Positions 40,326 through 56,093 of a DNA stretch of 64,000 bases are shown one piece after another. Source of the DNA: Thermococcus sp. M39 (GTDB taxonomy: Archaea; Methanobacteriota_B; Thermococci; Thermococcales; Thermococcaceae); NCBI RefSeq assembly GCF_012027325.1, contig NZ_SNUG01000002.1, positions 203,211 through 267,210 on the forward strand. Reading direction: 5' to 3'. The notes under the pieces are model-generated. The model did not search any database. It had not been told where the DNA came from and worked only from the letters and a program-made list of their open reading frames with translations. Numbering within the stretch: position 1 is the first letter of the stretch; the number at the start of each line of letters is the position of its first letter. The position numbers were made by a program, and so were the translations under genes.

Positions 40326-40423
40326 GTCACTCACCAACGCTCTTTTTAAGAAATTATGCAGGCAAAGGTTAAAGCTTTTTTGCATAGTTAACTTTAAAAC
40401 TCAAAAAGAGAGGTTAATTTAGG

Positions 40424-40480
40424 CAATGAAGAGAGCGAATTGCACTGAAAGATGATGAACCTCCACTTCGGAGCCCTTGA
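40424..40480 (+). ncRNA. C/D box sRNA-like element in MazG leader (weak candidate)
   Basis: Read 5 to 3: an imperfect C box ATGAAGA (40426-40432), 12 bases, a D-prime box CTGA (40445-40448), a 3-base spacer and a perfect ATGATGA (40452-40458). An 18-base interval and a one-mismatch D box TTGA (40477-40480) follow. The first half has canonical spacing but the second does not. It lies in the leader of the MazG gene, so it may be an accidental match or a leader-derived sRNA. Confidence 0.35.
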
Positions 40481-49328: not shown

Positions 49329-50384
49329 ATGAAACTTTTGATAAAAACTCAGAGAGGAATGGAGGCTGTCGCTGGCAATTACATCAAAGAAGCTTTGGAA
49401 GATGCTAAGGTCTGGATTTCACCTCAAGGATATTCTGGATTGATTTTAGTTGAAACTGACGATAAAAATGCAAAAGAGAAGATTTTAGAAATCCCAGAAG
49501 TTGAAAGGGTTATCGAGGTCTTACATGAGGTTCCTGCTAGAATTGGAGATATTTTAAGTGTCGCTGAAAATCTTGCCAAGTTTATTAATGAGGGAGAAAC
49601 ATTTGCCGTCAAGACTAAGAGGAGAGGAAAGCACGACTTTACAAGTGTTGATGTAAATGTTCAGCTTGGAGCTAAAATAAAAGAGCTTACAAATGCTGAA
49701 GTTGATTTGAGCTTCCCAGATAAAGCAATTTTAGTTGAGATAATCGGTGATAGAGCATATATCTCCATTGTTGGAAAAGAGGAGTGGAAGAAGTACACTC
49801 CAGAGAAGACAGATGCAAGGAAGCTTTTCAAAAAAGTCAGCATAGTCCAGATGCCGTACTGGGGAGATTATAAAGCATGCAGAAACTTTGGTGAGAAGAT
49901 TGGCAGAGCTGCTCAGGCATTTGAAGTTAAAGAGCTAATAATAGCACCGAAAGAAAAAATTGACGGCTATGAGCTCATGGAATTTTTGAGAGGAGTGAAG
50001 ATTGGGCAAGAGTCAAGGTATCAGATTCAAAGAGAAGCTTACCCATGGAAAATTGAGAAAGTTCCTGTATATGTTTGGGATTTGTACCAAGTGATAAGAG
50101 ACAAAAGAAGAAACAAGCGTTTGCTTATAATTACAGACCCCAAAGGGCATACTCTAGCTGAGGTTAAAGATGAACTGGCGAAAGACATGTATTACGCAAA
50201 GGAAGTTGTTGTGTTCATTGGTTCGCGAGAAGGCATTCCAAGGGGGCTATTTAGATTTGCGGATTACGTTGTTGACTTAGCACCTTATATGACATTTGCA
50301 ACAGAACATGGAATCCCCGGTGCATTAATAGCACTGTGGACAATTTATGAAGAAGAGCTTAGGAGAAAGGAAGAAAAAGAATAA
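49329..50384 (+). CDS. THUMP-SPOUT RNA methyltransferase
   Basis: About 351 residues from the ATG at 49329 (GGTGATAGCG upstream). An N-terminal THUMP-like RNA-binding domain (about 1-150, COG1818 type) includes GETFAVKTKRRGKHDFTS near residue 93. The C-terminal half resembles SPOUT methylases (LLIITDPKGHTLAEVKDELA near residue 258; the SAM-knot region VVVFIGSREGIPRGLFRFAD near residue 295). It probably methylates tRNA or rRNA; target not known. It has its own promoter region after eS1. A C/D box sRNA lies on the opposite strand immediately after its stop. Confidence 0.82.
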   Translation: MKLLIKTQRGMEAVAGNYIKEALEDAKVWISPQGYSGLILVETDDKNAKEKILEIPEVERVIEVLHEVPARIGDILSVAENLAKFINEGETFAVKTKRRGKHDFTSVDVNVQLGAKIKELTNAEVDLSFPDKAILVEIIGDRAYISIVGKEEWKKYTPEKTDARKLFKKVSIVQMPYWGDYKACRNFGEKIGRAAQAFEVKELIIAPKEKIDGYELMEFLRGVKIGQESRYQIQREAYPWKIEKVPVYVWDLYQVIRDKRRNKRLLIITDPKGHTLAEVKDELAKDMYYAKEVVVFIGSREGIPRGLFRFADYVVDLAPYMTFATEHGIPGALIALWTIYEEELRRKEEKE

Positions 50385-50437
50385 TCAGCCCCTAAGGTCA
50401 TCATCACCTTTCAGCAATCCGCCTTTTCATCACATTT
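50383..50437 (-). ncRNA. C/D box sRNA (methylation guide)
   Basis: On the minus strand: C box GTGATGA (50433-50427), a 12-base guide AAAGGCGGATTG, D-prime box CTGA (50414-50411), a 3-base spacer, C-prime box GTGATGA (50407-50401), a 12-base guide TGACCTTAGGGG, and D box CTGA (50388-50385). All four boxes match consensus and both guides are 12 bases, the archaeal norm. By the N+5 rule, the D guide would methylate the U of CCCCUAAGGUCA and the D-prime guide the fifth base (C) of CAAUCCGCCUUU. It fits between convergent stop codons, in the 3-prime UTR of the DUF92 gene. Confidence 0.88.
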
Positions 50438-54665: not shown

Positions 54666-55058
54666 CTACTCAAATGCAGCAATTGCTTCAATTTCTATTT
54701 TTACACCTTTTGGAAGGTCTGATACTTCAACAACTGCTCTTGCTGGCTTTGAGTGCCCAAAGTATTCCTCATAGACTTTGTTGAACTCTTCAAAGTCCTT
54801 TATATTCTTTAGGTACACCGTAACTTTAATTACATCATCAACCGTTGCTCCCGCTGCCTCGAGTATTGCTATGAGATTTTCAATTGCTTGCCTCGCTTGC
54901 TCTCTTATGTCTCCTTTTACAACTTCACCAGTCTCTGGATTAATTGGTATCTGACCTGAAATTACTAGGAGTTTATCTGGGTTCTCCACAAGAATGGCTT
55001 GGCTGTATGGCCCTATTGGTTTGGGAGCGTTTTCAGTAAATATTACACTCTTCTTCAT
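54666..55058 (-). CDS. ridA: RidA family enamine/imine deaminase
   Basis: A 130-residue YjgF/YER057c/UK114 (RidA) protein. It hydrolyses reactive 2-aminoacrylate and related imines from PLP enzymes. Family marks: [20 protein letters not shown] near residue 17, [20 protein letters not shown] near residue 64, and the active-site [20 protein letters not shown] near residue 102 with conserved Arg and Glu. Length is standard. The ribosome binding site is GAGGTGAGAGGAG. A C/D sRNA is encoded upstream on the same strand. Confidence 0.93.
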
Positions 55059-55103: not shown

Positions 55104-55171
55104 AGAGGAGTCAGCGAAGCGAAGAATCTTCATCGCTTTCGCTCAGGTGTCCTCGGCTTCATCATTCCTCT
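55104..55171 (-). ncRNA. C/D box sRNA (methylation guide) with terminal stem
   Basis: On the minus strand: a 5-prime flank AGAGGA, C box ATGATGA (55165-55159), a 12-base guide AGCCGAGGACAC, and D-prime box CTGA (55146-55143). Then come a 6-base spacer, C-prime box GCGATGA (55136-55130, one mismatch), a 15-base guide AGATTCTTCGCTTCG, and D box CTGA (55114-55111). The 3-prime flank TCCTCT perfectly pairs with the 5-prime AGAGGA to give a terminal stem. By the N+5 rule, target Cm in GUGUCCUCGGCU and Gm in CGAAGCGAAGAAUCU. It lies between the DUF2666 stop and the RidA start. Confidence 0.88.
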
Positions 55172-55178
55172 GTTGTTT

Positions 55179-55973
55179 TTAGCCTTTCTTTTCTAAGTAT
55201 TTTTCAAGAGGCTTTGCAGGGATATCTATGCCCAACCCTATCTTTTCAAGCATCTTTCTCAAAGCGTAAATTTTTGCATGCTCAACGAATTCGCCGGGGG
55301 CATAGTTGTGTGCTGGAAAGTGGAGATATTTATCAACCACTGTCTTTATTTCAACATCACTTTTTGCCTTTTTGATTTCAGCAAACCATCCATCAATGCC
55401 TTTTAAATCTATTTTAGCATATATCGGCAGCTTTGCAGTTATAGTCTCGTTTATGCTAGCTAAAAGCCTTGCAACATCAGCTAGAGGGGTTTTCTCATCG
55501 ATTATTAATCTTTTCACAACTATCCAGCTTCCATGTTTAGCCGTGAAGTTTATGTGATCCTCTTTGTATGGCAGCACTATTTTGAGCTCTTTCATTGATC
55601 CTTCGGGATAATAAATGTTAATTTTCCTTGAAAGCGTCTCTCTAACCAACAATGCTTTTGAAACCTCTACTAAATGCTTTTTGAGCTTTTTATCAGTTTC
55701 AAATACCAGCTTTCCAAGATTTCTTGAGGCTTTAGGTGATTTTAATGCTTTTATAACTTCCCATAAATCTCCTTCAGCCATTTCCTCAGCTAAGTTCATT
55801 ACTGCGGCCACATCCATTACATCGGTTAAATATTCGGAAATCTTCATATTCACGGTATTTGAAACACTTGCCAAAAAATGGGCAATATTCTCATCTTCCA
55901 TAACGAGAAGCTTATCCCCAATTTCCCAATTTTTATGTTTAGCCGTAAACATTACGTGGTCTTCAATCTTCAT
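55179..55973 (-). CDS. DUF2666 protein with internal duplication
   Basis: About 264 residues from the ATG at 55973 (GGTGGTGGAA upstream). It contains two related halves. The first begins DHVMFTAKHKNWEIGDKLLV near residue 6, with LASVSNTVNMKISEYL. The second begins DHINFTAKHGSWIVVKRLII near residue 136, with LASINETITAKLPIYA. This matches the archaeal DUF2666 family, whose function is unknown. The duplicated architecture suggests a pseudo-dimer. Its 3-prime UTR hosts a C/D sRNA, so it may double as a host gene. Confidence 0.8.
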   Translation of the reverse strand: MKIEDHVMFTAKHKNWEIGDKLLVMEDENIAHFLASVSNTVNMKISEYLTDVMDVAAVMNLAEEMAEGDLWEVIKALKSPKASRNLGKLVFETDKKLKKHLVEVSKALLVRETLSRKINIYYPEGSMKELKIVLPYKEDHINFTAKHGSWIVVKRLIIDEKTPLADVARLLASINETITAKLPIYAKIDLKGIDGWFAEIKKAKSDVEIKTVVDKYLHFPAHNYAPGEFVEHAKIYALRKMLEKIGLGIDIPAKPLEKYLEKKG

Positions 55974-56093
55974 TTCCACCACCTCTATCTTCTTTACAGC
56001 TACCTCTATTTTAGCTTTTCTTACACATAAAATAAAGTTTATAAGATTGTCACAATCTAACCATTCATGAGAGCGAGGAGAGGGGTCTTAAGA

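What the first reader, a model, noticed from the sequence alone, without database searches (positions are those of the whole stretch)
55104..55171. C/D box sRNA with 6-bp terminal stem between DUF2666 and RidA
Boxes ATGATGA, CTGA, GCGATGA, CTGA occur in order and the flanks AGAGGA/TCCTCT pair perfectly, which is strong independent support. It explains most of the gap downstream of the DUF2666 gene.
Basis: partly seen in the sequence, partly recalled or inferred. Interest (0 to 1): 0.6.

Follow-up and report, generated by a model that had tools for sequence, protein, structure and literature searches.

The report
Known archaeal methylation-guide RNA, sR45
This is a genuine but already catalogued small RNA (sR45) that most likely tells a heat-loving archaeon's methylating enzyme which ribosomal RNA letter to modify; its close relative in Thermococcus kodakarensis has already been sequenced as an RNA and found to form circles.

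Summary
On the minus strand, window 55104-55171 holds box C, D', C' and D in order with flanks AGAGGA/TCCTCT. It is a full-length Rfam sR45 (RF01274) match: 71.8 bits, E=1.4e-15. The gene occurs in 76 of 94 Thermococcaceae genomes. Both guides are nearly invariant at positions 1-11 and vary freely at 12, at the edge of the predicted duplex. The D guide pairs 10/10 with own 23S rRNA 2160-2169, predicting Gm2163 (E. coli G2056); 0.5% of shuffled guides do as well. The D' guide is less clear: 9/10 at 2098-2109, predicting Cm2102 (E. coli C1994), with an A.C mismatch at position 7 fixed on both sides. The T. kodakarensis ortholog (1103571-1103625) coincides with published sR34/Tko-sR35: 20,161 reads, 119 circular, none in the RNA-ligase knockout (PMC9014305). 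The terminal stem is real here but not a conserved family feature. Several near-complete Thermococcus genomes lack sR45, two with apparent remnants, yet keep the 23S target. In about half of orthologs box C contains the DUF2666 stop codon. Verdict: correct call, already known, low interest.

The parts
55104..55171 (-). sR45 C/D box guide sRNA (whole element; ends inferred from the T. kodakarensis ortholog's circular junction)
   Evidence: Rfam RF01274 71.8 bits, 55109-55169; ortholog junction 1103565-1103626 in PMC9014305 Table 1
55166..55171 (-). 5' arm of terminal stem, AGAGGA
   Evidence: sequence; 6 bp with 55104-55109, one unpaired C (55110) after box D
55159..55165 (-). box C, ATGATGA
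   Evidence: sequence; conserved
55147..55158 (-). D' guide AGCCGAGGACAC; best rRNA match 23S 2098-2109, predicted Cm2102 (E. coli C1994), A.C mismatch at guide position 7
55143..55146 (-). box D', CTGA (CCGA in many relatives)
55137..55142 (-). short spacer GCGAAA between D' and C' (K-loop sized)
   Evidence: length and sequence vary in relatives
55130..55136 (-). box C', GCGATGA
55115..55129 (-). D guide AGATTCTTCGCTTCG; 10 bp with own 23S 2160-2169, predicted Gm2163 (E. coli G2056)
55111..55114 (-). box D, CTGA
55104..55109 (-). 3' arm of terminal stem, TCCTCT
55179..55982 (-). DUF2666 gene directly upstream (context)
   Evidence: PF10869 E=4.5e-54; beside the sRNA in 75 of 76 ortholog loci, in opposite orientation in one
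54666..55058 (-). RidA-family gene downstream (context)
   Evidence: PF01042 E=1.1e-43; detected next to the sRNA in 62 of 76 ortholog loci

Best explanation
An archaeal C/D box guide sRNA, the local ortholog of sR45. Shown here: the boxes, the deep conservation, and a D guide complementary to 23S rRNA. Inferred from established C/D box biology: L7Ae binds the C/D and C'/D' kink motifs, Nop5-fibrillarin joins, and the particle 2'-O-methylates the rRNA nucleotide paired with the fifth guide base upstream of each D box. That is G2163 (E. coli G2056) for the D guide and probably C2102 (E. coli C1994) for the D' guide, about 60 nt apart in 23S rRNA. The terminal stem probably brings the ends together so that the ATP-dependent RNA ligase (Rnl) can circularise the RNA.
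For: Rfam hit. 76 of 94 family genomes carry it. Guide positions 1-11 nearly invariant and position 12 free in both guides. D guide 10/10 in 23S; 0.5% of shuffled guides reach that, and the target is invariant in 50 of 50 relatives' 23S. T. kodakarensis ortholog expressed and circular, lost in the Rnl knockout; coordinates cross-checked, since the 23S segment of the same genome falls inside the paper's 23S interval. Own genome encodes the Rnl (TIGR01209, E=4.9e-152). N+5 rule from PMC4644070.
Against: No methylation data at these nucleotides were found. The D' match is only 9/10 with an internal A.C mismatch; 19% of shuffled guides match rRNA that well somewhere, although only 1.9% do within 100 nt of G2163. 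Some near-complete relatives lack the gene.
Confidence: 0.92

Rival explanations
1. The D' half is not a methylation guide at C2102: the mismatch at position 7, near the catalytic position, is fixed, so it acts only as an rRNA folding chaperone or targets another RNA.
For: A at guide position 7 in 75 of 76 orthologs, against C in all 50 rRNAs examined. Chaperone roles for double-guide sRNAs are proposed in PMC4644070.
Against: The D' guide has the same 2-11 pairing span and position-12 boundary as the D guide, and its best match lies 61 nt from the D target. No better match in 16S or in the tRNAs scanned.
Confidence: 0.35
2. It is a cis-acting kink-turn element in the DUF2666-RidA mRNA (L7Ae binding or mRNA processing), not a trans-acting guide.
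For: It nearly always sits beside DUF2666, and box C holds the DUF2666 stop codon in 36 of 73 orthologs. PMC4247193 raises this possibility for some T. kodakarensis snoRNA-like elements.
Against: The guides, not just the kink motifs, are invariant. The downstream gene differs in Pyrococcus, and the element is on the opposite strand from DUF2666 in genus g6. A discrete circular RNA exists in T. kodakarensis.
Confidence: 0.06
3. Chance arrangement of short boxes.
For: Individual boxes are short.
Against: E=1.4e-15 against Rfam and deep conservation.
Confidence: 0.001

Closest known systems
Rfam RF01274, sR45 (archaeal C/D box sRNA)
   Same: Full-length match, same boxes, near-identical guide cores.
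   Different: 6-nt longer D'-C' region than the Rfam consensus, and a longer lineage-specific terminal stem.
T. kodakarensis sR34 / Tko-sR35 (PMC9014305)
   Same: Ortholog by guides and position next to DUF2666; 62-nt RNA, seen as linear and circular reads.
   Different: There the predicted 5' end lies inside the DUF2666 coding sequence; here the sRNA starts 7 nt after the DUF2666 stop codon.
Rfam RF01123, sR35
   Same: Generic C/D box similarity (26.1 bits).
   Different: Far below its gathering score of 60; not the right family.

Membership tests
Archaeal C/D box sRNA | Boxes C, D', C', D in order with 10-15 nt guides | tested here: met
Archaeal C/D box sRNA | Guide complementary to rRNA or tRNA across the N+5 position | tested here: met
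   D guide 10/10 to 23S 2160-2169; D' guide 9/10 only
Archaeal C/D box sRNA | Expressed as a discrete ~60-70 nt RNA | not testable with these tools
   No reads for this organism; met in the T. kodakarensis ortholog
Archaeal C/D box sRNA | Directs 2'-O-methylation with fibrillarin | not testable with these tools
   Needs methylation mapping
sR45 (RF01274) | Score above gathering cut-off over the whole model | tested here: met
   71.8 vs 40 bits, positions 1-55 of 55
sR45 (RF01274) | Conserved guide cores GCCGAGGACAC and TCTTCGCTTCG | tested here: met
   identical in the window; near-invariant in 76 orthologs
Circular C/D sRNA (Rnl substrate) | Terminal stem of 3 bp or more, and an Rnl gene in the genome | tested here: met
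   6-bp stem; TIGR01209 in own genome. Circularity itself not tested

The most novel reading that the evidence does not exclude
The D' half keeps a fixed A.C mismatch two bases from the catalytic position across a whole family, so it may be a conserved non-methylating (chaperone) guide, working with a catalytic D guide whose target lies 61 nt away in 23S rRNA.
Probability: 0.15. Interest if true: 0.4.

Novelty: already known. Interest (0 to 1): 0.12.

Why it matters
On its own it adds one more ortholog to a catalogued family. It is useful for annotation (the gene is easily missed between DUF2666 and RidA) and as a natural experiment: several Thermococcus lineages have lost the guide while keeping the predicted target, which lets one ask whether methylation at E. 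coli position 2056, beside the macrolide-site nucleotide 2058, is dispensable.

Tried and rejected
Conserved terminal stem as independent support: rejected as a family-wide feature. tRNA targets: best 8/10 (D') and 7/10 plus three G.U (D), not convincing; both strands of 16 tRNA genes and 28 oriented ones were scanned. D' alternative target 23S 1163 (8 WC plus one G.U): weaker than 2102. Rfam consensus pairing between the two guides: the free fold is only z=-1.85, so it is not taken as the working structure. A replacement sRNA carrying the D guide in genomes lacking sR45: none seen among the pattern hits inspected; only up to two per genome were read and the listing was cut. Papers naming sR45: none in the library. 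The original Pyrococcus papers are not held.

Full report
What is there. On the minus strand, 55171 to 55104 reads AGAGGA-AUGAUGA-AGCCGAGGACAC-CUGA-GCGAAA-GCGAUGA-AGAUUCUUCGCUUCG-CUGA-C-UCCUCU: stem, box C, D' guide, box D', spacer, box C', D guide, box D, one unpaired C, stem. It lies between a DUF2666 gene (55179-55982) and a RidA-family gene (54666-55058), all on the minus strand. Rfam identifies it as sR45, RF01274, over the whole model with E=1.4e-15, and there is one copy in the genome.

Conservation. 76 of 94 Thermococcaceae genomes hold an above-threshold match, in 5 of 6 genera; a phylum-wide search of 115 genomes adds none outside the family. DUF2666 is adjacent in 75 of 76 loci, and RidA was detected in 62; Pyrococcus (genus identified from genome sizes, my knowledge) and T. 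kodakarensis-like genomes have another downstream gene. In one genus (g6, L086) the sRNA is on the opposite strand from DUF2666. In 36 of 73 loci the DUF2666 UGA stop lies inside box C, and in some the D box runs into the next gene's ribosome-binding site (for example L072 and L089). Making the sRNA from that transcript would therefore cut the mRNA; in this window the sRNA starts 7 nt after the stop codon.

Guides and targets. In both guides positions 1-11 are nearly invariant and position 12 takes all four letters, which marks the end of the working duplex. The D guide pairs perfectly at positions 2-11 with own 23S rRNA 2160-2169 (GAAGCGAAGA), placing G2163 at the N+5 methylation position. 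That is E. coli G2056 in the usual numbering (one search gives 2054 on a 2900-nt annotated copy; I add 2 to bring the GGAAAGACCCC motif to its usual A2058-A2060). A shuffled guide does this well in 0.5% of trials, and the target is unchanged in all 50 relatives compared. The D' guide's best site is 23S 2098-2109, N+5 at C2102 (E. coli 1994), 9 of 10 pairs with an A.C mismatch at position 7. By itself this is weak (19% of shuffled guides), but its nearness to the D target makes it plausible (1.9%). The mismatch is fixed on both sides (A in 75 of 76 guides, C in 50 of 50 rRNAs) and remains unexplained.

Expression and circularity. The ortholog in the genome whose size matches T. kodakarensis KOD1 (2,088,737 bp; identity from my knowledge of that genome's size) lies at 1103571-1103625, minus strand. 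PMC9014305 Table 1 lists sR34 (alias Tko-sR35) with circular junction 1103565-1103626, 62 nt, 20,161 reads and 119 circular reads in wild type, and no circular reads in the TK1545 (Rnl) knockout. The coordinate frame is checked by the 23S segment at 2026646-2026826, inside the paper's 23S at 2024584-2027631. The paper links circularisation to a terminal stem of 3 bp or more; the window RNA can form 6 bp and the genome encodes the ligase, so circularisation is likely here (inference). The stem is lineage-specific: 30 of 76 orthologs have 2 bp or fewer in any register.

Loss. Near-complete relatives without sR45 include G035, G042, G055, G060, G073 and the g2 genomes. Downstream of their DUF2666 there is either nothing recognisable or a remnant: G060 keeps a copy with deletions in both guides, and G073 a short stub (calling them remnants is my reading). 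Their 23S target is unchanged, so the modification is either dispensable or made another way.

Conclusion. It is an ordinary, already catalogued methylation-guide RNA. Open points are minor: the D' mismatch, and the conflict between sRNA excision and the DUF2666 stop codon in relatives.

Noticed in passing
40422-40474 (+): Second C/D box sRNA candidate, sR17 at 35.8 bits, just under the gathering score of 36 (E=1.5e-4); AATGAAGA...ACTGA...GATGATGA...TTGA, just upstream of an ORF starting at 40477.
   Followed up: partly
50382-50437 (-): Third C/D box sRNA candidate, sub-threshold snoPyro_CD (30.4 vs 45 bits), with GTGATGA...GCTGA...GGTGATGA...GCTGA, between two ORFs.
   Followed up: partly
L259 (G060) and L256 (G073), just downstream of the DUF2666 stop: Apparent decaying remnants of sR45 with deletions in the guides, while the 23S target is unchanged.
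   Followed up: partly
L090-L094, L096, L097 and L077: In some Thermococcus relatives the D'-C' spacer is a hairpin-capable GCGGTGCCCCAGCCGC instead of a short K-loop spacer, suggesting a K-loop to K-turn change inside one sRNA family.
   Followed up: no
36 of 73 ortholog loci, e.g. L005, L015: The DUF2666 UGA stop codon is part of box C, so the sRNA overlaps the end of a protein-coding gene.
   Followed up: partly
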